Assembly (NCBI GenBank): GCA_025677815.1
Contig: JAIXMP010000043.1
Span: forward strand, 62,001-126,000
Direction of reading: 5' to 3'
Length of the DNA: 64,000 nt
From: Phascolomyces articulosus
Taxonomy: Eukaryota; Mucoromycota; Mucoromycetes; Mucorales; Lichtheimiaceae
The position numbers were made by a program, and so were the translations under genes. How positions within the stretch are numbered: the stretch's first letter is position 1; every line of letters begins with the position of its first letter. The notes below the pieces were generated by a model. The model ran no database searches, had not been told where the DNA came from, and saw only the letters and a list, made by a program, of their open reading frames with translations. Below are positions 14,208 to 43,245 of the stretch, one piece after another.

Positions 14208-17692
<3,485 letters not shown>

Positions 17693-25881: not shown

Positions 25882-27588
25882 ATGTCATTTTCATTTGGAG
25901 CACCTGCTGCGGCAACATCACAACCTGCCGGTGGTTTTTCATTCAATAATTCAGCCACTGCTACACCAGCACCAGCAGCAACCACCAGTGGTTTTGGTGG
26001 TGGATTTGGTGCTACATCCGCACCAACAACGTCTACTGCAGCAGCACCTACAACATTGGGTGGATTTGGTGGATTTGGACAACCTGCTACATCAACAACA
26101 GCAACGCCTAGTTTATTTGGTAACACCGCAATGAATAAACCAGCAGCGACTTCTACAGCAACAACTGGATTCGGTGGATTTGGAACCACTTCAAATAGTT
26201 TATTCAATACCAATAAACCAGCAACTACAGGTGGATTAGGTACTGGATTAGGTGGGTTTTCATCGTCATTGGGAGGTGGATTCGGTGGTGGATTTGGTGG
26301 AGCAGGTAAAATGACATTGATGATTCCTTTAAATACACATGCCATTTCAACAAAACAATTGATATAATACAACCATATACTGATACAAACTTATTATTTT
26401 AGGCACTGCAATGAACCAACAACAACGAGACCGCCAAGTATGGCAATTATTATTACAAATTGATGAAGAAGCAAGACGACAACAAGCTACTTTATTGAGT
26501 AGTGGAGAACAATATAAACCACAAAACATTTGGCAAGCTTTAGCTTTATTAAAATCTTGGTGGGATCCTCAATCACCTTATTGTCGTTTCAAACACTATT
26601 TTTATAACGTCGTACCTTCAGAACATGTACATCTTTATCAAAAACCACCAAATCACGATAAAAAAGCTTGGGATGATGCTCAAAAGAAGAATCCAGATCC
26701 ATCTCGGTAATAAAAAAAATGTTTCCCTTCTTTATATATTGATTTGGAAGAAAGGATATTATTTGGATAAAGTGACTAAAAACAAAGTTTTTTTAACCTT
26801 ATTCAAATGGTTTAGATTGGTACCTGCTCTGGCAATAGGGTTTGAAGATGTTAAAAAACGTATGGAAGCACAAGAAAAACAAGCATTAGCACAAATCTCA
26901 ATTCTTAAAGAAACAGAAGCCAAGATCAATAAATTACGAAACACAGACGCATTAGCAACTGCTAAGAAATTGGAAGAATATAAGACACGACATATGGAAT
27001 TAACACAACGTGTAATATGGGTAAGATACTACTTTTATATATCATCTATGCGCATCTTATATCGTATACTTCTATAGATATCAGGGATCTAATTGACACC
27101 TATTTATTCCTTTTTCTTTTAATAGCTATTGAAGAAAGCTCAAGTATTACGAAACAAAGGTCTTCCCATGACGCCTGAAGAAGAAGAGATGCGCGCTACA
27201 TTGGAAAACATTCAAGAACAATTACTTCGATCTGAACAATTCCACGGTAAATTGAGTCAATTATGGGCACAATTACAACTGATTAAAGAGTCAGGTCGTA
27301 AGTATGGCAAGTTGGATGATGTACATGGATGGAACAGCGTTAGTGGTGATGATATGAATAGTATAACCAAGGTAACTAGACATTGTATTTGTTATTGATG
27401 ATATAATATATTATATGTCGTGTATGGTTTTTTAAATGTCTAATATTTGAAATTTCTTATATTTTTCTCTAAAACACTGATAGATCTTGGAAGAACAACA
27501 AACTGGCATACAACATACAATGGATATCCTTGATACTGATCAAAATGATGTGGATAATATGATTAATCACTATCGTCTTCACAACTAA
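25882..27588 (+). CDS. NUP54: FG nucleoporin NUP54 (yeast Nup57 family)
   Basis: Five exons: 25882..26305, 26403..26706, 26816..27020, 27126..27371 and 27484..27588, totalling 427 aa. Residues 1-140 are an FG/GFG repeat region (GGFGGFG, SLFGN, SLFNTN). The rest is the conserved alpha-helical domain: RDRQVWQLLLQIDEEARRQQ, KSWWDPQSPYCRFKHYFYN, LVPALAIGFEDVKKRMEAQE, LLKKAQVLRNKGLPMTPEEE, then coiled-coil. NUP54 with NUP62 and NUP58 forms the central transport channel complex of the nuclear pore. The FG domain is encoded almost entirely by exon 1. Length is a little under vertebrate NUP54 (about 507 aa) because of a shorter FG region. Confidence 0.93.
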
Positions 27589-28737: not shown

Positions 28738-30970
28738 TCATACAATAATAGACAAATTTTCAATATGCGTTTCTAATAATTTCATACTTTGTCGTGATAA
28801 TCCATGAACATGTCTTAACACTACTGTATTCAATAAATTCTTATGCCACTGACAATCAATGATGTTTTCAACAGCTTGATCCGTAATAGGTACGTTTCCC
28901 AATTCAAGTGTTTCCAAAGAAGATGCAGGTTCCATTAAAAGCAACTTTGTAAATTCTTCCACGTCCGTTTCTGATATAATCTGATCCGAAGCAATCATTG
29001 TAAATTCCTTTAGACTTTTCATTCTCGTAACATGTTGCATGGCACTTTTGGTGAATCCATAGCACTGTACAATACGAATCACTTTTAATCCTGCTCCTTC
29101 TCCTCCTTCTTCTTGCTGAGAAACCAACATGAATTGATACATGAGCCAATCAAAAAATTCATCGACATTCACCTCGAATTTTGAAAATTCGAGCCTTGTC
29201 AGTCGTGTCTTTTCAACTATTGCATTCATGATATTTTTCATTTCAGGGTAATACATATCGATTTTGGCATCGCAGAGTGAAAGTTGTTTTAATACAGGAA
29301 AACATCGCAAAATCGCTCCAAGGTGCCAACAGATATGTCGACTTTTATTCGAACAAGAAAGATGAAAGGAAGTCAATCTGTGCATGGTGAAGTCGGTTAA
29401 TGCCTCCCATTCTAGCATTTGGGGATGCATATCAGCGATGCTTAAAGTCAGTGATAATTTTCGAAGCGTATGTTGACTTTGTTTTAGTCTTGTACGGATA
29501 TGTCTTGCAGTACGGATGTTATGAAGTACCAAACATTCAAGTCCGCCATTGTTCACATCACTATCTGTAGTAGTATTAGTTGTTGTAGCAATGGCAGCTC
29601 TTTCATGGCGCGGTGGAATTTGTTCATCGTCGTCAACATCAGCTTCGTCGTCGTTGTGGTGCTTATCCAACCATTCTTCCATGTTATCATCAGTGAATGC
29701 TCCTGTCCTAATATAAGTCAAATCCTGACACTGGTTTCGAATCACTCCCATAATATCTTCGTTGTCAATGGTGTATTTGGCATTGTAAAATATTCTGAAA
29801 TATCGAAGTTTAGGCATCCAAGGAAGCAATATATGTAATACTAATCTGAATGATCCTACATGATTGGGGAAATGTAAAACAAGATCCAACCGTGTCAATT
29901 CTGTTCTTGTCGATGGTATATCTCTATTATCGACGACATGTCCATCCAATGAATAAATGTTCAATTTGATAGTCGTCAATTTGGGACATAGTAATAGAAT
30001 ACGTCCCAATGAAACGTCGATAAATGATCGTGAAGTCAATTCCAGTTTTGTAAGTGTGTTTGAAAATAGTGGTAAAACAGAATATAACATTTTTTTTAAA
30101 CTAATTTCTGCATTGATGGTACCATCTCCTATAAACACAGGTTTATATCTAACTTTAGCTAAAAGCAGTTGTTCCCCATCCATCATCCAACCTCCTATCC
30201 CACATTATCGTTAACATACCAGTATCATAAATTGCAAGTGATTGTAAATTAAGAAAATTGTGCTCTTTGAGCAATCCAAGATATCTTTTTATCTTTTCTG
30301 GCCGTGCATGAATCAGCAACTCCTCGACATGAATCGAAATAATAGATAAAAGTTGAGTTGTTTTCTTCTTTTTTTTACCAGCAGTCGATATACCACTGTG
30401 TAAAACAAATTCTTTCCAAATATCAGTGTAATTCAAGACTTTGAGCCGCCATGAACGCGCCACATCGATGCATTGCATTGCAGATTTTGAATCCAGTTGA
30501 CTAATAATGTTGCATACTATTTCATATGGACATTGGTATAAAAAATCGACACGTCGTTCTAATCGTTCCTTTGCCATATATAATTGTTGCTGGAGTACAA
30601 GGCGATCTTCCATAGAGGATGAAAAATAACGGAGACCTTGTTCACATATCGATATGGATTCTTGTTGGTTTCCCTGACACGAATAAAGTACCCCTGCATG
30701 GATATAATGGGCTGGATTGTTCGGGTTGGTTTGTATTTTTATTAGTATTTCGTTTATTTCTTCTGTAAGCGTTTTATAAGATCGAGTGCTGGTAGTGCTG
30801 GTATAAGCGGCGTGTGTTATCATGGCAGTTGATCCATGTATAGGAATGTTGTTGTCATCGTTGTGAAGTAGTTGGTGATTGCTACTGAGTTGAACAGTGA
30901 CATCGCGATTATAGTTATTGAAATGAATGATTGTCACTGTAGGATTGAATGTTACTTTTGGAATGGTCAT
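28738..30970 (-). CDS. TPR-like/F-box/LRR protein, paralogue A (713 aa)
   Basis: Two exons, 30970..30220 and 30128..28738, with a 91-nt phase-1 intron after DTG. I chose the acceptor at 30129 because it gives GDGTINAEISLKK, matching the paralogues (GGKLNPDANLTKS and related). Residues 65-135 form a helical TPR-like unit (YKTLTEEINEILIKIQ; HAGVLYSCQGNQQESISI). Residues 141-190 are an F-box (DFLYQCPYEIVCNIISQLD, then VARSWRLKVLNYTDIWKEF). The C-terminal ~460 residues are irregular leucine-rich repeats broken by an acidic Asp-rich insert. The order TPR, F-box, LRR is that of yeast Dia2 and S. pombe Pof3, substrate receptors of SCF ubiquitin ligases. Orthology is not claimed; substrate unknown. 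First of four tandem intact copies on this strand. Confidence 0.82.
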
Positions 30971-31188
30971 ATTATATTATTTGATCGAATAACCAATACA
31001 CTCTATTTTTTTGAATCATGGTTTTTACGTTAATCATAATATATATCCTCTTGTTTATGTTAGGTATTGATCCGAATCTTACTTGAATCGTGTACATTGA
31101 ACTATGTTTTCAAAAAAGTAAACCTCTGAAATTGGCAATAGCTGAAATTTTTCTATACACTGTAAGCTTTATTAAGGTAATCATATAA

Positions 31189-33626
31189 TTAAAGTCTAGT
31201 TTTTTTCTGTGAGAATGTAAAGCTTCTAGTGAAAATAAAATCGCTATATGAAGAACAATGAAATTCATTATATAATGGGGCAATTTCTTCTTTAAGTATT
31301 TTGACGTTTTCAAATAAAATTTCTTTTGAGCGATATAACATCAATTTTTCTTGCAACATATCATGTCGTTGACATAAAGTAATCACATTTTTTATCGCTG
31401 TATCCGTAAAATGCATATTCAATAATTCAAGTTTTGATAATGCCTGAGGACGGGAGGAATCATATGCCAATTGATTGGTAAACATTTCGATAAACATATC
31501 CACACCTTTCCTACGCCTATGTTGGTAGCAAATCCCTAGGGTGAGTTCTTTTAGACTTGTAATGTGTGATATATCGAGGAAAGCCTTGAATAAAAATCCT
31601 TGACAATCAACAATCTTTAGATATTTTAATCCACTTGAAAATGTTGATGTTGATTGATAATAGTGTATTAACTGTTCGAAGAAATCTTGAGAGAATACAC
31701 TCATTGTTTTGAATTCAAGTCGCTTCAGATTGGGTAATGTAGTTATTGCGTTCAATATTTGATTGTTATTAATAGTTTCATCATCTATCTCAAAGGACGC
31801 AGGTATTAATGATGAATCTTCCAATACAAGTGCTTCTAGTGCTGGGAAACATTGTAAAATCGCAGCAAGTTGTTCGTAAACTGGTCCCCTCACCTTGGAT
31901 AATCGAAACATGGTCAATTGGTGCATTGTAAATGACGTGAAAAATTGCCATTCGTGCAGATCAGAAAAAAGAACGGTTTGATAGCCTAAGCAAATTGATA
32001 AACTTTGAAGTGTATGGCAACTTGCTTCCAACCGTGCTCGAAAGGATTGTGATGGTGTCATATTATGAATATCTATGTGTCTAAGTCCTTTCATTGTTGT
32101 GGTTGTTGCTATCCGTGAGACATCTGCTAGTGCAGGAGAATTATTTGAAGTAGTAACAGTATCAATTTCTTTGTCATTGATGTCGTCGTTGCCATCATCA
32201 TCAAGCAGCAGGGTTTCATCGTCGTTAAAATCTTGATTTTGAACATTATAGATTATATCTCCAAGTGGAGTAATGTACTTTGTCAACAAGCCGGTTTTAA
32301 TAATCTTGAGTTTCGGGCAATGGTCCCCGATGACTTCGATCATGTCTTGGGTATCAAACATGTCTTTGGCTTCATAATACACAACGAGGCGCCGTAATTC
32401 GGGTGTATATTTGACTGTTTCTCGATAAATATATCTGACTTCTTGTGGATTCATTGGCCAGTTGGCAGATATTTCCATATTGGTCAATGGTGATGTCAAG
32501 GATGGTTTTTCGTCTGGTTCCAACGATGACTTATGATTCAATGAATAGACTCGTAACTTAAGAGATTTCAGATTTCGACATATCAAAAGAATTCGATCCA
32601 AGGAGATAAGGACCACAGATTGCGAAATGATATCCAACCGTGTTAATGTAGAGGCTATGGAAGGTAATGCGTTGTATAAAGATTTTGTAAGGTTGGCATC
32701 CGGATTGAGTTTACCACCCCCTATTATAAAACGTAAGAATAATAACTGGTTATTTCACTACATCATCATTAACCATCCGAATAGATAGATGGAGGCTTCA
32801 TACTATTTTTTATAGCTGGTTTACCAGTGTCTGTGATCACCAAAGACTGTAAATTGGCAAATTTGTTTTTCTTGATGGATATGGAAAGATGTCTTCTAAT
32901 TTTTTCTGGTCTTGTATTGATATAGAGCGCCTTGATAATCTTTGATTCAATACTCAACAATTGTGTTATTTTGCGTTGTTTTCCCATGCCATCCTCCAAA
33001 GTGAAGTCTTTCCAAATGTTTAGATAGCCCAAGAATCTCTTTCGCCACATACGAGCTACATCTACCCCTTGAATTGCTGTTGCAAGATCTAGGTAACTAA
33101 TAATCCTATGGCTCACTTCATAAGGACATTGCCCAAAGATATCAATGCGTCTCTCGATTTTTGTTTTCGCCATATCAAGTTGCTGTTGAAGAAGAAGATA
33201 TTCATTCGCGAGCGATGATGGTGGTGAAGAAGCAACTCTATGGTTGTTAAGGCCTTGTTCACATAGGTGTATGACTTTCTCTTGATTTCCTTGACATGAA
33301 AAAAGTCTTACTGCAGATAAATAATTATTCAAATTTTGTGGATCCTTTTCGATTTCTTGCAATGTTTCCTCTATTTCTCGTTCAAGTTTTGTTACATATG
33401 CATTCTTGTTATTCGCCATTGTGGTGGATATTGGTTGAACAGTACTTTTGCCATTATTGTCGGCACTCCTAATATGATTCTGTTTTTCATTCTTGTGAAA
33501 TGCTTGTAATAGATTTTCCCTCTGCATCACTGTAACTTGTTTCAAATCTTCATTGAATTGGCTTGTAGCAATGTCGTCACTTTGCGCTTCACGAATGAGT
33601 TCATCAATACTTTTCCTGGATGTCAT
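31189..33626 (-). CDS. TPR-like/F-box/LRR protein, paralogue B (777 aa)
   Basis: Exons 33626..32825 and 32720..31189, phase-1 intron of 104 nt located as in its paralogues (after ITDTG). TPR-like segment about residues 77-155 (LEREIEETLQEIEKDPQNLN; SAVRLFSCQGNQEKVIHLCE). F-box at 161-210 (IDIFGQCPYEVSHRIISYLD, MWRKRFLGYLNIWKDFTL). LRR region about 465 residues with a Asp/Asn-rich linker. The C-terminus extends some 20 residues beyond the usual end, finishing FTFSQKKTRL. The longest member, with an N-terminal extension of about 35 residues before the helical segment. Likely an SCF substrate adaptor by architecture; partner and substrate unknown. Confidence 0.82.
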
Positions 33627-33955
33627 GGCCGAAAAAAGTGTTACTTGTTTTATCCTTTAATAAAAAACGGGTAAAAGAAAAGAAGAGGAATTAAAAGGCA
33701 TACTATAGAGATACACCTTTATATATTTTTCACTATAACTGATTTATATATAGTATAAAATAGCACAGCCGCAATTAATTATAAACATGATGGTTCGAAA
33801 TAAAAAAGCGACAAAAACGTTTATTATCTATATTACACGACTATTATATTACATATTACACAGGGTACTTTTTTTTTAAAAAAAAAGAACAAGTATAATA
33901 ATCATAATCATGGACATAAAATATTGGTGACACCAATGGTTTCAAGCTCTTGCAT

Positions 33956-35004
33956 CTAATATATTCTGAACGGATTCATTCGGTAATACAACGTTTCCCA
34001 TTCAAGCGAAGAAAGGAATGGAAGATCACAATTGCTTCCTACAAAAGACGTGTGTGTAAATGCATTGATTTCATCCGCAGATAATGCTGGGAAACAATCA
34101 AGGTCTTTTTCAGGGAGCAATGAATCAAGAGCAAAATGCTCTAAGCTTCTGATATTTGAAATATGTTGTAAAACCGTAGATGTAGATTTATTGCATTGAA
34201 AAAATTCGAGGAATCTTAACTCATTCTTAATGTTACTTCTAGACGTCATTGTGGCAGAATTATCCCCATATAATTGTTGTTCGGAAACAATGACAAAACG
34301 ATACAATATTGTTTCAAGGAACCGATGAACAGGAGTAGTGATATGGAATTGGTAAAGATTTGTTTTTTGAATTATTGCCTCGATCAATCGGGTTGCCTGA
34401 TTTTCTTGTTCCACAGCACCCGCTGCTCCATGACCGAACTCAACGTGTCCTAAATAAAGCAATTTTAGTGCAGGAAAGCTGTGTAGTATACCTGGCAGTA
34501 TTTGTGAATAAAGCGCTGCTGGACCATTGGATAGACTGAAGGGTGTGAGGTTGCAAAATGTTAACTTGATAAGAGAATCCCAATCATCCAAACCACGATC
34601 TAAAAGTTGACTTTTTATATATAGGACTTTGAAAGATAAAGTTCAAAGCGAATCACTGCTTTTTCTAATCGCGAACGTATGTTGTATGTTGAGTCTATTT
34701 CTCGAAGTTTCAACATTCGTACGATCCACCATTCGTCGGATCCTACCCATCATTGATTGCATCATATACACCATTATCGTTCAATAGTGCCAGATCCCGT
34801 CGACCACAAAAAGTGCCATAAGATGGAAATCCAACGTTGATTTCCTCCAATTCAGGACAGGTTAATGGCTTGCAACGTCTCGTTAATTTCTTGGGTAAGT
34901 GTTTTATAGGTTGATTTTGATATTTCTGACTTGTTAATAGTATCTATAGTGTCCATACTCAAATTCTTCCTATCACCGCTACTATTGTCTTGCATAATAT
35001 TCAT
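33956..35004 (-). pseudogene. F-box/LRR paralogue with internal deletion
   Basis: The copy starts at an ATG at 35004 (MNIMQDNSSGDRKNL) and enters the family helix STYKTLTQEINETLQAIN. It then jumps directly into the mid-LRR part: LTCPELEEINVGFPSYGTF, equivalent to the CPKLEYLKTGF segment of paralogue C. The rest of the TPR-like unit, the whole F-box, the shared intron and the first LRRs are missing, roughly 250 codons. A stop then follows DAINDG near 34744. The C-terminal LRR part remains open from 34591 to 33956 (YSQILPGILHSFPALKLLYL; HISNIRSLEHFALDSLLPEK) but ends early at MNPFRIY. Closest to paralogue C by eye. Its X-box-like promoter motif is still present. Confidence 0.8.
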
Positions 35005-35582
35005 TATTGTCAAGTTTGACCCCGGATTGTGGCTTGATTGAGAAAAAGAAATCCGCTAATCGATTTTATGAAAGAAGAGAATTCGGAAGTGGAATCATGC
35101 TCCTTTTTGAAAGAATTTTTTTTATTGCTGCGCATTCGCGTTATTTGGAATGATAAAGTGTGTAACTATAATTTGCAACGAACGATGAAATATTCCTAAA
35201 TAGGTTAAAGTTATATCAAATTTAAATCAAAATGGACACCGTTGCCATGACAACGAGAAATTAAACATCTCTTTCTGAATTGAAAGTATAACAACAATTA
35301 AGTGAGTTCAAGTAGCTATTTTTCCACCAAAATTTTACTTCAAACGTACTCTATTTTTAAATACTTCATCTCATTCATCTTTTATCGTGACAAAGAAATG
35401 AAATATATATTTACAGGATATGGAATAAAATGGTACATCTGTGGCAGGTGACAGAAGTATAGTTTATGTCAGCAGTTTAATAAGAATAATAATTTTATTT
35501 TGCCATAGCGATGTTAAATACAATTATTTTACTATAAGTATTACATTAAAATATCCATTCAATGGATAATGAGCAGGTAAAA
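35005..35582. other. Promoter region of the deleted paralogue and 3' side of paralogue C
   Basis: Non-coding AT-rich DNA. Contains the X-box-like palindrome at 35241-35254, described separately. Confidence 0.5.
35241..35254. promoter_or_regulatory. X-box-like RFX site upstream of the deleted paralogue
   Basis: GTTGCCATGACAAC: two half-sites GTTGCC and its inverted partner GACAAC, with one mismatch from a perfect palindrome. It lies about 237-250 bp upstream of the pseudogene's ATG. RFX-family winged-helix factors bind GTNRCC(N)RGYAAC-type sites. The binding factor is inferred. Confidence 0.5.
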
Positions 35583-37828
35583 CTAATTTAAACTTTCCAT
35601 ATAATTCTTCAGAAGCTCTCCTGCTTCTTTTGAGTGTCCATGAATCCTTTCCACAACCAATGACTTTAAGTTCTTGCAGATGACAATGTTCTGGATGGCT
35701 TGATCTGATAATTCCATACCATGTAATTCTAGCTTGGATAGTAATGGAAGACTACTCTTTTTAACGGAAGACGTTGGCAAGTGTTGCGTAAATTCATTGA
35801 TTTCATCGGCAGATAATAATGGGATATCAGTGGCTCTACACGCAGGTGGCACCATAGAAAGAATAATACATTTTAAACTTTTAATTCTTGTAATGTGTCG
35901 TAAAGCAGCAGCTGAAAATCCATCACAATCGGCAAACTGAAGTGATGTTAAAACGCCATTTGTGCTGTTGGTGGTAGCTGTAGACGTTATTTCTTGTTGT
36001 TGTTGCGCGACATCCCCATAATAGATCAAGAGTGCTTCAAAGAATGATTTAAATTCATTGCATATATTGAATCGATTGAATACGAGTCGGGTAAGTTTTG
36101 GTTTTTGAATAATGGCATTAATCAAACGGTTTGGCTTGTAGTCTTCTTCTGTTACATCTCCATTTGGTAACCCCATGGGTACCCGTTGATCCATTGATGC
36201 ATAACCCAAGCAAAGTATTTCCAGCACAGGTAACTTTTGCAATATATCGGGAAGTAATTGGGAATAAAATTGTGAGGTTGCATTTGCAAAGGTTAACGAG
36301 GCAAGATTGTGGAAAGTATAATTTGTGAACGCGCGCCAATCATTCAAGATGCTGTAAAAACGACCATGATGGCTTAGTGTCATGGATAACGTGTGAAGTG
36401 TATCAGTGCTTATCTCTAGTTTGGCAAGTAAAGGTGTTGGAGCAAATACATTGTGAATCACCACAGATCGCAACGACCCATTTGTTGTTGCTGTATTGTC
36501 ATCATTCTCGTTTTTATCGTCATTATCATTATTATGATCTTCCATAAATTGTTGTAGCTGTCTTTGTCGACTATAGTTTTTTAAACCACGAGATGTAAAT
36601 CCTGTTTTGAGATATTCCAATTTCGGACACCACCCTTTCAATGCTGACAAAATATCTCGACTATTAATACCAGATCCACCAGTATAATATACGGCAAGCA
36701 ATTGTAAGTTCGGAGTGTAAGGAAGTAGTTCATCCAAAACTGACCAAATTTTCCAATGGTGATAAGAACGGTGAATTATCTCTAATTTTTTCAATGACGT
36801 AAATTTGCCAAGGTACTCTCCTTCATATGAATGGTGTGATGACCGAGCAGGTGTAAATCCACTTCGTCGCTCATCTCGTACATCTTCTTTCATGTGGTAA
36901 ACATCTATCCTCAAATATTTGAGATGCGGGCATTGAGTTAATATACGAACAGGAGATAAGTTGGCAAACTTTTGAGAGGACAGTGTCACGTCTAAGTGCA
37001 TCAACTTAGATGAGATATAAGGTAGTGCATTAAACAAGGATTTAGTCAACTGGAGTTCAGGGTTACTGCTACCCTCGTCATCTAATAAAGAGTATTTTAG
37101 TTATTGCATGTCACTCATATGTACTCGTGCTTATATAATCATTCGGTTACTGTTGTATAGAATAATGGTTCATCCAAATTAATACCTTCATCTGAAACAC
37201 ACAAAGATCGTAGATTAGAAAAGTCATTTTTCTTGAATAAAGTAGTTGAAAGATATCGTTTTAACTTCTCTGGAGGAGAATGAAGGTATAGAACCTTGAT
37301 ATCTTTTGCTATAATTTTAAGTAATTGGGATAATTTGCGTGCTTTACAGATCCCTTCTTCCAAAGCAAATAATTTCCAAGCAGCCGTGTGATTCAACAGC
37401 TTTTGACGCCACATATGTGCAACATCTAAACATTGTAATACTGTTTCTGTATCAAGACGGCCAATAATATTTAATACGATTTCATAGGGACATCTTTCCA
37501 TAAAATCAACGCATCGTTCTTCTTGTGCTTTTGCTATATCCAGTTGTTGTTGAAGCAAAAGAACGTGACCTTGATCATCGGCACCGGATGAAATACTCGT
37601 TAAACCTTGTGTGAGAATACTGATCGCTTCTTGAGATTTTCCTTGACATAAATAGAGTTTTCCCACAGATAGATAGTTTTCAGTATTGTGTGGTATTTGT
37701 TGTATTTTCAGTAAAATTTCATCAACTTCTTGGGCGAGCGTTTTATATGTTGAGGTTGCTGGTTTCAAGATGTCAAGATCTTCGTTGCTGCTAAAGCTGC
37801 CATTCATTGTTGTTAGCTGATCCCGCAC
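35583..37828 (-). CDS. TPR-like/F-box/LRR protein, paralogue C (713 aa)
   Basis: Exons 37828..37186 and 37081..35583. The 104-nt phase-1 intron starts inside SDEG, at the same place as in the other members, so the downstream exon begins DDEGSSNPELQLTKSLFNAL. TPR-like segment about residues 28-103 (YKTLAQEVDEILLKIQ; SVGKLYLCQGKSQEAISIL). F-box 107-156 (DFMERCPYEIVLNIIGRLD, MWRQKLLNHTAAWKLFAL). LRRs follow (ILTQCPHLKYLRIDVYH; LPYTPNLQLLAVYY; RLVFNRFNICNEF), with a long Asp/Asn-rich insert and ending GELLKNYMESLN. A perfect X-box palindrome sits about 200 bp upstream. Same inferred role as the other members: SCF substrate recognition. Confidence 0.83.
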
Positions 37829-38550
37829 AATGATTTGATGGAAGGAAAAGCGTTGAGCGTTTTTTTAAATGACAGAAAAAATAGAGAGATTTAGAGTAAG
37901 TTTTTTTTTATAAATGAGATTTTGGTTGCATTGCCTGTTTTTATTGGAAGCAGAAGCATCTTCTATTAGTTACATCTTTTGACTAATATAAATTGATCGA
38001 AAATTTGGTGTAACACACACTGGTTGCCATGGCAACCTGTGTAACTGTTCCAAAAATCTGGATTTCCTCACCCTTTGCACTTGACAATAAAAAAGCTCAA
38101 GAGAAACGTTTTATAATAGGTATGATATGTTCAACCTATAATTAATTATATATATATATAATATAGAAAAGATACCCCATAAAAAGAGTGACCATCTTTA
38201 TGTTGCATAATTGGTTCAGTTGAGACGTAAAAAAGAGGCATAAATATAATATTATAACCAAAATACACCTTTTCTTTTGAATTGATGCCAAATAACGTAG
38301 TATAAGAATAATTCAAAATTGTTGATACGTCACCGTAGCATTGCTTTTGCCTAATATCAATTCATATATGAAATAATGTGGGAGTAGATTTTGGAAAATA
38401 AAAGTGTCATACTTGCTGATTATTGTTGCTCAAACATAAATACATTTTCATATTTTACATAGGGGATTAGATCCTGTGCTGCATATTATTTACACACTTC
38501 ATCTATTTTGTAAAACGCAGTGCGCACACTGTACCCCGCTTCGTTTTATA
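37829..38550. other. Promoter region of paralogue C and flank of inverted-repeat element
   Basis: Non-coding. Contains the perfect X-box at 38022-38037, AT runs near 38150, and then the left border of the inverted-repeat element. Confidence 0.5.
38022..38037. promoter_or_regulatory. Perfect X-box palindrome (RFX site) upstream of paralogue C
   Basis: GGTTGCCATGGCAACC is a perfect 16-bp palindrome containing the RFX consensus GTTGCCATGGCAAC at 38023-38036, flanked by further imperfect symmetry (ACACA left, TGTGT right). It lies 195-210 bp upstream of the start at 37828. Fungal RFX proteins (Crt1, Sak1 type) bind this sequence. Confidence 0.7.
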
Positions 38551-38785
38551 TTTGGAATCGTGTAGCGCACATATATATATATTTCAGAATCCGCACGAAG
38601 CGAAAAATAAAAAACATGCAACAAGCAACGTTGAATGAGGTTTTCGGTACTTGGCTATTAATGAGATTATGTTTCTCGTAAAATTTTGAACTTATATACA
38701 ACTTGAAGATTCTAGCTCTCTAATGGAACACAATACGATAAAAAGTGTGATTTACAGAAAGGATTGCTATTTGCCTTCTCATTAG

Positions 38786-39139
38786 CACTCATGACATTAA
38801 TAATTTGCATCTCAAGCCTCCATACTCTACCAACAGTGAATGGTGGATGAAAAATATGTAAAACAGTTTTTAGTTTGCTGTACAAGTTTGTTTTTTTTGC
38901 AGATATTGTAGATATAGACGATTTTGCATTTCACTGCAAAATATCACTGCCTGCCATATATGGTAATTTCTTATCCATATGCTTTAACGACGCACTTCAG
39001 AGCCAGATGAGCATGAAATCTCGCTCTGTTTTGTTTTATACAATAGTGGTGAGGTAGAAAACAATATATATTAATGCAGCTAGTCGATCATTATAGCCGT
39101 TGTGATATTAGAAAGGATAGTCTATGGCGTTATTTTTAA
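38786..39139 (+). repeat. Left arm of the long inverted repeat
   Basis: Pairs with 39500-39846 in reverse complement. Starts ATGACATTAATAATTTGCAT near 38791 and ends around TTATTTTTAA. Differences seen include G versus A near 38981 and 39129. Confidence 0.85.
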
Positions 39140-39499
39140 TGATAAATGCGAGTATAAAAAGCGGTTCACAATGATCAAGATGCTGGTTAACACCGTAAGA
39201 TCAGTTGAAAATATTTAAAAGAGCACTGTATATGGATTTTAATAAATATTTAAAACACGAACAGATACAAAAATAGGCACATAGCATGGTATATAATAAT
39301 TAGGTTGTTTTTCTCTAATATACACTATTATTCCATGATGATCACTAATCCACGCTTTAGATCCAATATACCTACAATTTTTTTCTTCTATTTCAGCATG
39401 CTTAAGATACTTTATTTATGCACAACACACAAAAAAAAGCATGCACAGATCCATGTGCTCAATTCTCATCGATACTGACATTATCTACGTTATTCTTAA

Positions 39500-39846
39500 A
39501 AATAATGCCATAGACTATCCTTTCTAATATCACAACGGCTATAATGATCGACTAGCTGCATTAATATATATTGTTTTCTACCTCACCACTATTGTATAAA
39601 ACAAAACAGAGCGAGATTTCATGCTCATCTGGCTCTGAAGTGCGTCGTTAAAGTATATGGATAAGAAATTACCATATATGGCAGGCAGTGATATTTTGCA
39701 GTGAAATGCAAAATCGTCTATATCTACAATATCTGCAAAAAAAACAAACTTGTACAGCAAACTAAAAACTGTTTTACATATTTTTCATCCACCATTCACT
39801 GTTGGTAGAGTATGGAGGCTTGAGATGCAAATTATTAATGTCATGG
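39500..39846 (-). repeat. Right arm of the long inverted repeat
   Basis: Reverse complement of the left arm. It directly abuts the outer repeat at 39847, unlike the left arm. Confidence 0.85.
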
Positions 39847-40075
39847 GTGCGCTACATGATTCCAAATGTAAAATACTGTAAGTACAAAAAATGCAACCTG
39901 CGAGATGTGTAAATTACAACGCGCGTACTACATGTTAATATATTATATTATACAAAGATAATAAACAGTCCTTCTATAGCAAAAAACAAAAAAAAATATC
40001 AAGTAAAGAATATATAAAACATATAGAACAGAGTTGATATATAAATAAATTAAAAAAAAGAATGAGAAATATTAT

Positions 40076-42305
40076 TTACAAAATATAAAAGTTTTTAATA
40101 TGTTTTTTCAATAGATCCATTCCTTGCTTTGTAAGTACCTTGTCACATACTTTTTGTTTACAACTAGCTCTAAATGTGAATTGTGTAAGACTCTTACATG
40201 CCAAGATAGATTGTGCAATTTCGTCTGTCATCGGCATACCGGATAATCCAAGTTCAGATAACAATGGTATCCCTCCAATCAATTTAACAAAGTCCTTCAT
40301 ATCATGATGACTTATTTGTTCAATATCAAACCAAGATGTCCAGGAAATATAGAGTAATCGTAAACTTTTGATACAACCCACCTGTTGTAATAAAGAGGTT
40401 GTAAATCCGCCACATTCAATAATCCGAAGTGAATGCAATATTCCACCACCACTATATTGTGGCTGCTGCTTTTCCGCTACTGACCGATAATGATAGATAA
40501 GTCGTTCAAATCCCGGACCACGTACATCAATGCCTCTCAGTTTTAATGCCGAGAGTTTTTCTAACCTTGTCACTGCATCCAATATATTGTCTCTTCGTTC
40601 GCCTATGAGTTCCTCCCCTCCTAGCAAATTAAGCGATTCTAGTGCTGGAACACAACCAAGAATTGTGGGAAGATGTTCATAAAACCCGAGAGATCCACCA
40701 TCGATACTGAGCGTTGTTAATTTGGTCATTGTAAAATGCGATAAATCTTGCCAATTCAATCGTGTGTCATACTCTTTAGGTACGTATCCTAAATCGAGTG
40801 ACAATATTTCAAGCGTATTCTGACTTCTTGCTAATTGAAATGCAAGCGGCTTGGATGAGGTTACCATTTGAAGTTCTAAGGAGCGCAATCCTGTGCCACC
40901 TCCTTCAAGGGAATCATCCTTGGCTATCGTATCAGATTCCTCATTTTTATCATTGTCGTTATTTGAAGAAGATGATCCAATGTGGTGTAAGTTTGTCATA
41001 TATTCTTCTTCCCAGAGTGGAAGGTCCAACGCCATTTTGATTCCTTCTAAACTGGGACAAAGTTGTCCAAGCGCAAATAAAGGATCAGGATGGAAAAACC
41101 CATATAATATGATATTTTGTAAATGGGGTGAATATTCCAATAAGGACTTTAGAGCCAATAATGATGGATATCCTCGAGAGACAAGATGAAGTCTTGTCAA
41201 CGATGTCATTCGATGTACAGTGATTGGTATTTCTGTTCCGAGATCAGCTATAATTCCGGCTGATAGCCTCATATTTTTAAGGTTCGGACAAACGGATACT
41301 ATATTACCCAATGACAGCTTGTTTTTGCATAAATGCAGTGTCAATTCGAGCGATGTTAAGGTCTGGGCAACCGACGATAACGCACCATAGACAGTGCCAA
41401 GATCCGCGTCTAGATGCCCCAATACTATATATATATATATTCATCAAAATAATACAATAATAAGCATTATGTTAATAAATAAATCATGGGAAAACTAGAT
41501 TAATTTTTTTACTACATTAACCCACCCTCCTCATTGTTGTTTCCGCATGTTATTGTATGTATATAGATAAGATATCTTATATTTTACCATAATCGTCCAG
41601 TGTAAGTGATTTTAAGTTTGGAAAACTACTTTTTGCAAGTAATTCAATTGGGTGTGTGGTCGTTCGATTCATTCGCGACGTGATCTTTAAATCCTGCACA
41701 TGTTTGGATACAAATGGTAAGATTCGTACAATTCGTTTATGTTTTAATCCATTATTCGGAACCTTCATTTCGTTGATAACCACTCTTTTCCACAAAGTGC
41801 TGCATCCTAATAATTTGCTCCGCCAAGAAGGCGAAACATCCAGGCAATCGGCTATCGTTTGTTGATCGAGATATTGAGTAATATGACATATGATTTCATA
41901 TGGATACTGCGATATAAAATCAACCCTTTGTTCCAATTGTGACTTTACCAAATCAGATTGCTGTTGAATAACTTGCCGATCCGTGGTAGAAAAGAATTGA
42001 AAACTTTGTTGAAGTGCTGGAATAGCGTTGGATTGCTTTCCTTGGTCAGAATAGAGTTTGGCAATGTTCATATAACCTTTAGCATCTTGTCGGTGTTTCT
42101 GTATCTTTTTCTGTGTTTTATTTAGCCTTTGATGAAATGTGTTATATCGTGTTGTTGCTGTTGTTGACTGTTGTACTTTATGAACTGAAAATGATTCTGT
42201 CGATCGTGGTAAATGAGCATTCTTCTTTATTGGTGTTGTATTGTTGAGTAATTCCATAGTTGTCGTCATGTCGTCTCTAGAGTTGTTGGGCATTATCCAA
42301 AACAA
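40076..42305 (-). CDS. TPR-like/F-box/LRR protein, paralogue D (688 aa)
   Basis: Exons 42305..41588 and 41424..40076, phase-1 intron of 163 nt after LDDYG, the conserved family position. TPR-like part about residues 54-125 (YNTFHQRLNKTQKKIQKHRQ; NIAKLYSDQGKQSNAIPALQ). F-box 127-177 (VDFISQYPYEIICHITQYLD; WRSKLLGCSTLWKRVVI). LRR domain about 450 residues (LGNIVSVCPNLKNMRL; LLEYSPHLQNIILYGF; HLPTILGCVPALESLNLLGG), ending KKHIKNFYIL. The most divergent of the four. An alternative start four codons later (MPNNSRDD) is possible. Likely SCF substrate adaptor by architecture. Confidence 0.8.
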
Positions 42306-43070
42306 TCCAGTTCTTTATATTGTTATTTGAATATTTTAATGTTGAATGACGTTTGTGATGGTACTGTTGGAATCGTGGGGATTAAGAAAGAAACAAATTT
42401 GCAATGGGAAGGTTTATATATAACACGATCGTGTCAAAAAAACACTGCGTTCTAGAGATAAAAGGAAAAGAAAAATTGCCAAAGCAAGTTAGTAAGTTTG
42501 TTTTTGTGATACCTCGGCCAAGAGAGCCGAACTTTAAATGAGACTCTCACGCATAATAATCAATTTTACACGCATGATAATAGAAAAAGTTTATTCACAT
42601 AAGCAAGAATTAGTCAATTCAAGTCAAATAAAGCTATGAAATTGTCATATTTAGTTGTATTGGTATGATAGCATATGTAATTGGAAAATATAGAAAAATG
42701 ACAACTTAAATGGGTTATTTTGATCAAGTGATTTTCATTTTGCAAGATAAAGTTTACTTTTTACATAAAAAGCCAAAACTATAAATTCACAATACATGGA
42801 GTAGCAGTTATCCCCACATTTTGCCTTCACTTTTTGATTATCAAAAATATTTATATTGTGCTCTCACGTCCCTTTTCATTCTCTATCGCAACAGTTATTG
42901 AAAACCAAATACCCTGATACAGTCCTTTTTTTTACCACATGTCAATCGTTATGCATTTATGAAAGGGGACTTTTAGTATCGTATGTTGTTTAGTAAGCTG
43001 TTAAACATTTTTCCGGTGTAGTTTTTCTCAGGTCTCTATATTTTTATAGTGGTGAAGAAATTTTCATGCG
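42306..43070. other. Intergenic region
   Basis: Promoter side of paralogue D. AT-rich; no X-box and no other feature found. Confidence 0.4.
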
Positions 43071-43084
43071 TCAGTAAAATGGGG

Positions 43085-43245
43085 TAAGCAAAATATATTG
43101 ATGCTGCCTTCCCAAAATAAAGTGCTTCAAGTACTGGTAGACGTTGTAGCATATTTGGAAACTGATCAGAATACATGAATGAGCATACATTGCATAGGCT
43201 AAACATGAGAAGGTTGTGTATTGTGAATATGGAAAGATTTCTTCA
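43085..43245 (-). pseudogene. LRR relic of the F-box family
   Basis: The minus strand reads FTIHNLLMFSLCNVCSFMYS followed by DQFPNMLQRLPVLEALYFGK. It lines up with paralogue C: TFHNLASLTFANATSQFYS and QLLPDILQKLPVLEILCLGY. Only this central LRR fragment (about 50 codons) remains; flanking frames are broken. It extends the family's footprint beyond paralogue D. Confidence 0.65.

What the first reader, a model, noticed from the sequence alone, without database searches (positions are those of the whole stretch)
28738..43245. Tandem expansion of TPR/F-box/LRR proteins with one shared intron
Four intact genes and at least two broken copies lie on one strand over about 14.5 kb. Each intact copy has a helical TPR-like unit, an F-box with the core CPYEI or CPYEV/YPYEI, and a long LRR region. 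All four have a single phase-1 intron at the same point just after the F-box half. The order TPR, F-box, LRR is that of Dia2 and Pof3, normally single-copy genome-stability factors. A local birth-and-death cluster of this architecture suggests rapidly diversifying SCF substrate receptors, perhaps for self/nonself, mobile elements or environmental targets. I infer the function; the family relationships are visible in the sequence.
Basis: partly seen in the sequence, partly recalled or inferred. Interest (0 to 1): 0.75.

Follow-up and report, generated by a model that had tools for sequence, protein, structure and literature searches.

The report
Dispersed F-box/LRR gene family cluster
Four intact genes and two broken copies of a large fungal family of probable ubiquitin-ligase adaptors sit side by side here, but each intact gene whose kin could be placed has its nearest relatives on other contigs, so this is one patch of an ordinary genome-wide family expansion.

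Summary
The genes are real. Four intact two-exon genes (A 30970-28738, B 33626-31189, C 37807-35583, D 42293-40076, minus strand) share a phase-1 intron position; two broken copies lie among them. TPR-like, F-box and LRR parts are supported by profile and model, though only D passes Pfam's F-box cut-off. Gene B equals a public protein of Phascolomyces articulosus, Mucorales. One clade of the four is rejected (AU p 8.5e-6; 3.7e-4). The intron is older than the cluster. The one young pair (C and its C1 twin) shows omega 0.47 (0.30-0.72): no positive selection. Special kinship with Dia2/Pof3 is unsupported: Dia2 is one of several F-box/LRR fold matches (eighth by E-value, slightly higher by TM-score than the F-box matches above it). 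Most likely these are SCF substrate-receptor paralogues of a known kind.

The parts
28738..30970 (-). Gene A, intact, 712 aa; exon 1 30970-30220, phase-1 intron 30219-30126, exon 2 30125-28738
   Evidence: splice inferred from frame and family, not from transcripts
31189..33626 (-). Gene B, intact, 777 aa; intron 32824-32721; identical to public protein P0001 (BDA99DRAFT_542991, Phascolomyces articulosus)
33956..34717 (-). psi1, 3' half of the LRR region of a broken copy (open frame 34642-33956), closest to C and its twin (35-36%)
34852..35004 (-). psi1, 5' remnant (start and first TPR-like helix) followed by a stop; TPR/F-box core and first LRR half missing
   Evidence: DNA match of 34865-34919 to L040
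35583..37807 (-). Gene C, intact, 706 aa; intron 37185-37082
35445..38438 (.). Block (gene C, 631 bp upstream, 138 bp downstream, intron kept) duplicated on contig C1 at 94.8% DNA identity
40076..42293 (-). Gene D, intact, 684 aa; intron 41587-41425; the only one over Pfam's F-box cut-off
43066..43242 (-). psi2, LRR scrap of 47-59 aa, closest to C and its twin (42-43%)

Best explanation
The region is one mixed cluster of a large dispersed family of TPR-F-box-LRR proteins in a mucoralean fungus. Shown: the architecture, one phase-1 intron between the F-box half and the LRR half that is older than the cluster, kin on many contigs, at least one recent DNA-level duplication between contigs (C), and decay of other copies. 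Inferred: each protein docks on Skp1-Cullin1 through its F-box, uses the LRR arc (with a disordered acidic loop) to bind a substrate for ubiquitylation, and uses the short TPR-like part as an extra docking site. The cluster arose by duplication and dispersal of genes or small mixed blocks plus losses, not by repeated local copying of one gene.
For: Family spread: about 77 loci on 31 contigs. Tree of 25 rows (24 loci of this genome and one Circinella protein): B with c45_1603 (100/100), C with c1_2558 (100/100) and these with c23_481 (99/99); D with c23_479 (100/99) in a 17-row tree. A window-only clade is rejected. c23_481 (C-type) and c23_479 (D-type) are neighbours on one strand of C23, so a C-type/D-type neighbourhood recurs. 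Intron donor shared by 12 of 13 clade genes printed; public protein P0003 joins at the same point. F-box and LRR: profile of 11 rows matches FBXL2 E 3.9e-10, TIR1 1.1e-7, Cdc4 F-box 5.8e-6. Model of B: helices 80-158 and 163-200, then beta-alpha repeats 205-752; best Foldseek match FBXL2 in complex with SKP1. Among A, B and C, exon 1 is 42-50% identical and exon 2 28.5-31% (tblastn), as expected of a conserved adaptor half and a divergent receptor half.
Against: Pfam's F-box cut-off is passed by only one of the four; B has no Pfam F-box hit. The TPR part is weakly matched. The model's mean pLDDT is 72 from an 11-row alignment. No expression, Skp1-binding or substrate data. A's place inside its clade is weakly supported (82/61; 80/78). 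The trees hold 24 and 16 loci of about 77; some near but broken hits (C1:303061-303921, C19:856909-858409, C41:295243-295800) are in neither. Block copying is inferred from one recurring pair, and the order of C-type and D-type differs between the two places. Both broken window copies are closest to C and its twin, so some local copying is not excluded.
Confidence: 0.8

Rival explanations
1. Local tandem birth-and-death expansion of one ancestral gene under diversifying selection.
For: Four intact and two broken copies in a row on one strand. A true tandem clade of three exists on another contig (C45: 1587, 1592, 1594; 100/100), so the process occurs in this family. Both broken copies are closest to C and its twin.
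Against: AU test rejects A-D as a clade (p 8.5e-6) and A-C as a clade (p 5.4e-9); B, C and D each have a well-supported sister elsewhere; C pair omega 0.47.
Confidence: 0.08
2. These are in-paralogues of Dia2/Pof3, replisome-linked factors that have multiplied.
For: Same domain order as Dia2 (TPR, F-box 211-247, 15 LRRs 248-716 in budding yeast; passages of PMC8695382). Dia2 7pmk_L is among the Foldseek matches (rank 8, E 1.9e-6; TM-scores 0.34/0.51, slightly above FBXL2 0.28/0.47 and TIR1 0.33/0.41).
Against: FBXL2, TIR1, COI1 and D3 rank above Dia2 by E-value, and unrelated LRR folds such as RNase inhibitor reach higher TM-scores (e.g. 0.38/0.59). No chain named Dia2 in the 33 profile matches at E<=1 nor in the 60 of 73 shown at E<=10. 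No Dia2 or Pof3 sequence was available for a tree.
Confidence: 0.08
3. A largely relaxed, drifting family: copies arise and decay with little function (genomic drift).
For: Two decayed copies in 14.5 kb; omega 0.47 is high for a conserved function; other loci carry stops (e.g. c23_479).
Against: Four long frames stay open at 28-35% identity, and F-box, tryptophan and leucine positions are invariant among the four; omega is below 1 (upper bound 0.72).
Confidence: 0.2

Closest known systems
FBXL (F-box/LRR) SCF receptors: FBXL2, Skp2, TIR1, COI1
   Same: F-box followed by a long LRR arc; among the best sequence-profile and fold matches
   Different: Extra N-terminal TPR-like hairpins, a disordered acidic loop inside the LRR (B 415-476), and a large copy number in one fungus
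Dia2 / Pof3
   Same: Order TPR, F-box, LRR; similar length (Dia2's described end is residue 732, passages); one of the fold matches
   Different: No specific sequence match seen; about 77 loci here; replisome function untested.
Large F-box families of Mucorales, e.g. the 31-member PF12937 orphan family of Choanephora cucurbitarum (PMC5238444, passages)
   Same: Lineage-specific multi-copy F-box genes in a mucoralean genome
   Different: The passages seen do not give TPR/LRR architecture or clusters
F-box expansions of Caenorhabditis and plants (PMC8665587, PMC3030570; starts of abstracts in the search listing only)
   Same: Copy-number expansion and lineage-specific gain and loss
   Different: Other kingdoms; those families were not compared here

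Membership tests
F-box/LRR (FBXL) protein | F-box | tested here: met
   D over Pfam cut-off; family profile matches the Cdc4 F-box at E 5.8e-6 and FBXL2 from its F-box on; helices 163-200 in B's model. A and C sub-threshold, B no hit in Pfam.
F-box/LRR (FBXL) protein | C-terminal LRR arc | tested here: met
   Beta-alpha repeats 205-752 in the model; matches to FBXL2, TIR1 and RNase inhibitor folds
F-box/LRR (FBXL) protein | Binds Skp1 in an SCF ligase | not testable with these tools
   Needs a binding assay
Dia2/Pof3 orthologue group | Order TPR, F-box, LRR | tested here: met
   shared with other family members such as c18, so not specific
Dia2/Pof3 orthologue group | Closest kin is Dia2/Pof3 | tested here: inconclusive
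   No chain named Dia2 among listed profile matches; Dia2 eighth by E-value but slightly above other F-box matches by TM-score; no Dia2/Pof3 sequence at hand for a tree
Dia2/Pof3 orthologue group | Binds the MCM/CMG helicase through the C-terminal LRRs | not tested
   Interface residues were not compared
Local tandem expansion | Copies are each other's closest relatives | tested here: not met
   (24 and 16 loci of this genome in the two trees)
Diversifying (positively selected) receptor family | dN/dS above 1 overall or in the LRR | tested here: not met
   One pair only: omega 0.47 (0.30-0.72), LRR exon 0.45 (0.28-0.73); 4 of 87 LRR strand positions changed against 38 of 361 helix and other positions and 6 of 51 insert positions

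The most novel reading that the evidence does not exclude
A mucoralean fungus keeps a repertoire of more than 70 TPR-F-box-LRR ubiquitin-ligase receptor loci, some in mixed clusters that are copied between chromosomes as small blocks, and uses it as an intracellular recognition system for foreign or incompatible proteins.
Probability: 0.07. Interest if true: 0.6.

Novelty: new member of a known kind. Interest (0 to 1): 0.2.

Why it matters
It corrects a tempting reading: neighbouring paralogues with one shared intron look like a local tandem burst, but the tree gives three of the four nearer kin elsewhere. It also documents a large TPR-F-box-LRR family in Phascolomyces for which the held library shows no description (no paper there holds both the species name and 'genome'), a resource for asking what expanded SCF receptors do in early-diverging fungi.

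Tried and rejected
Local tandem clade: rejected by AU tests. Positive selection: not seen in the one usable young pair; A-D themselves are too diverged (28-35% identity) for a useful dN/dS and were not tried. Dia2 kinship by sequence: no chain named Dia2 among 33 matches or 60 shown of 73; distant member c18 (P0005) also gave none among 47. Dia2 is not among the 50 rows of the VIA-align list, which excludes nothing. Wider protein search: 4 hits for the A-D profile and 1 for c18, both limited to about 8000 scored candidates, so distribution among other fungi is not established; Circinella minor has one relative (P0004), which pairs with c32, not with A-D. Proteins A, C and D were not returned; why was not followed up. 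Literature: F-box with Mucorales, Mucoromycota, Lichtheimia, Mucor/Rhizopus, Rhizophagus irregularis or fungal genomes showed no description of this family in the listings and passages seen; I saw passages of PMC5238444, PMC8695382, PMC4023604, PMC7482071 and PMC4133162, and listings only for the rest. Lichtheimia corymbifera's paper has no 'F-box' in its main text; its passages report tandem duplication of other families. The dN/dS script stopped with an error on its last, one-codon bin, after the values quoted; the intron script stopped after 13 of 24 genes, of which c45_1592 showed no donor.

Full report
What is there. On the minus strand between 28.7 and 43.2 kb there are four intact two-exon genes and two broken copies. 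Each intact gene has one phase-1 intron whose donor lies 37 bases from the start of a conserved F-x-x-L motif. The proteins are 712, 777, 706 and 684 aa long and 28-35% identical to each other. Gene B is identical to a public protein of Phascolomyces articulosus, a mucoralean fungus; the genome held has 47.4 Mb in 110 contigs.

Domains. Pfam finds the F-box above its cut-off only in D; A and C are sub-threshold and B has none at E<=1; TPR and LRR matches are all sub-threshold. A profile built from 11 family rows, including exon pieces of A, C and D, matches FBXL2 (3.9e-10), TIR1 (1.1e-7), FBXL5 (2e-6), the Cdc4 F-box (5.8e-6) and designed TPRs in the PDB. The model of B (mean pLDDT 72) has TPR-like helices at 80-158, F-box helices at 163-200, LRR repeats at 205-752 and a disordered acidic loop at 415-476. 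Foldseek's first match by E-value is FBXL2 with SKP1; TIR1, COI1 and D3 are third, fourth and seventh, and Dia2 is eighth. By TM-score Dia2 (0.34/0.51) is a little above those, but RNase inhibitors score higher still, so this is generic LRR likeness. VIA-align 2 lists LRR folds in general, such as Rna1p, FBXL17 and RNase inhibitor.

Family size. Searches of the whole genome with A, B, C and D gave 69, 68, 68 and 70 matches. Merged from a hand-copied list they make 78 places. There A and B fall into one place and two genes (C1:2041930-2044005, C1:2267927-2269900) are split in two, so the count is about 77 loci on 31 contigs, five of them in the window; some are LRR-only or broken. F-box-like matches as a whole number at least 150: 150 of 150 scored candidates, of 514 in the first look. 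The searches state that such counts are lower bounds.

Kinship. In a tree of 25 rows (24 loci of this genome, mainly the better hits, and one Circinella protein), B pairs with c45_1603 (100/100), C with c1_2558 (100/100) and these with c23_481 (99/99); A joins B's pair weakly (82/61) and D is unresolved. In a 17-row tree with one open piece of a broken copy on C23 added, D pairs with it (100/99). Holding A-D together is rejected (p 8.5e-6; p 3.7e-4), and so is A-C (p 5.4e-9). A real tandem clade of three lies on C45 (100/100), within about 7 kb of B's sister. On C23 a C-type and a D-type gene are neighbours, as in the window, but in the other order. I read this as old mixed clusters copied and shuffled; that step is inference. 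Loci left out of both trees include a few near but broken hits (C1:303061-303921, C19:856909-858409, C41:295243-295800).

The shared intron. Of 13 clade genes printed before the script stopped, 12 have a donor in phase 1 at the same point or one codon later, eight of them outside the window; c45_1592 shows none. A distant member, c18, is intronless in its public model (P0005 equals the open frame). So the intron is older than the cluster.

Selection. C and its twin on C1 share a block of 2994 bp at 94.8% identity, intron included. Omega is 0.47 (0.30-0.72) overall, 0.61 (0.21-2.74) in exon 1 and 0.45 (0.28-0.73) in the LRR exon; some 83-codon bins have wide intervals that include 1. By structure class of B's model, changes hit 4 of 87 strand positions and 38 of 361 helix or other positions of exon 2, plus 6 of 51 insert positions. 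Nothing suggests positive selection on the binding face, but this is one pair. Exon 1 (97.9%) and the upstream part (96.7%) are closer than the intron (88.5%) and exon 2 (94.6%), which may reflect partial gene conversion.

Reading. These are most likely SCF substrate receptors of the FBXL kind with an extra TPR-like docking part, members of a large dispersed family. Substrates are unknown. Multi-copy F-box families in Mucorales have been noted, for instance 31 PF12937 genes unique to Choanephora among the genomes compared there (passages). The finding is real but of a known kind.

Noticed in passing
38785-39145 and 39490-39850: Inverted repeat, 361-nt arms 99% complementary, 344 nt apart, between genes C and D. 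The genome search gave 33 matches, its own two arms included, with about eight further opposite-strand pairs, mostly 72-77% identical to the query: a foldback or long-TIR element family whose arms here are far more alike than the copies are to each other.
   Followed up: partly
C45:1587559-1605829 (L041, L042): A second cluster of the family: three genes forming a true tandem clade (100/100) and, close by, the closest relative of window gene B.
   Followed up: partly
C23:477216-481900 (L040): A C-type gene beside a broken D-type gene on one strand, echoing the C/D neighbourhood of the window.
   Followed up: partly
35445-38438 against L039: Exon 1 and upstream part of gene C are closer to the C1 twin than intron and exon 2 are; possible partial gene conversion.
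   Followed up: no
26553-27398 +: Nup54 nucleoporin gene pieces flank the cluster.
   Followed up: no
16580-17692 + and 16607-17587 -: A 370-aa frame (S-adenosylhomocysteinase-like by recall, not tested) with a 326-aa open frame on the opposite strand.
   Followed up: no
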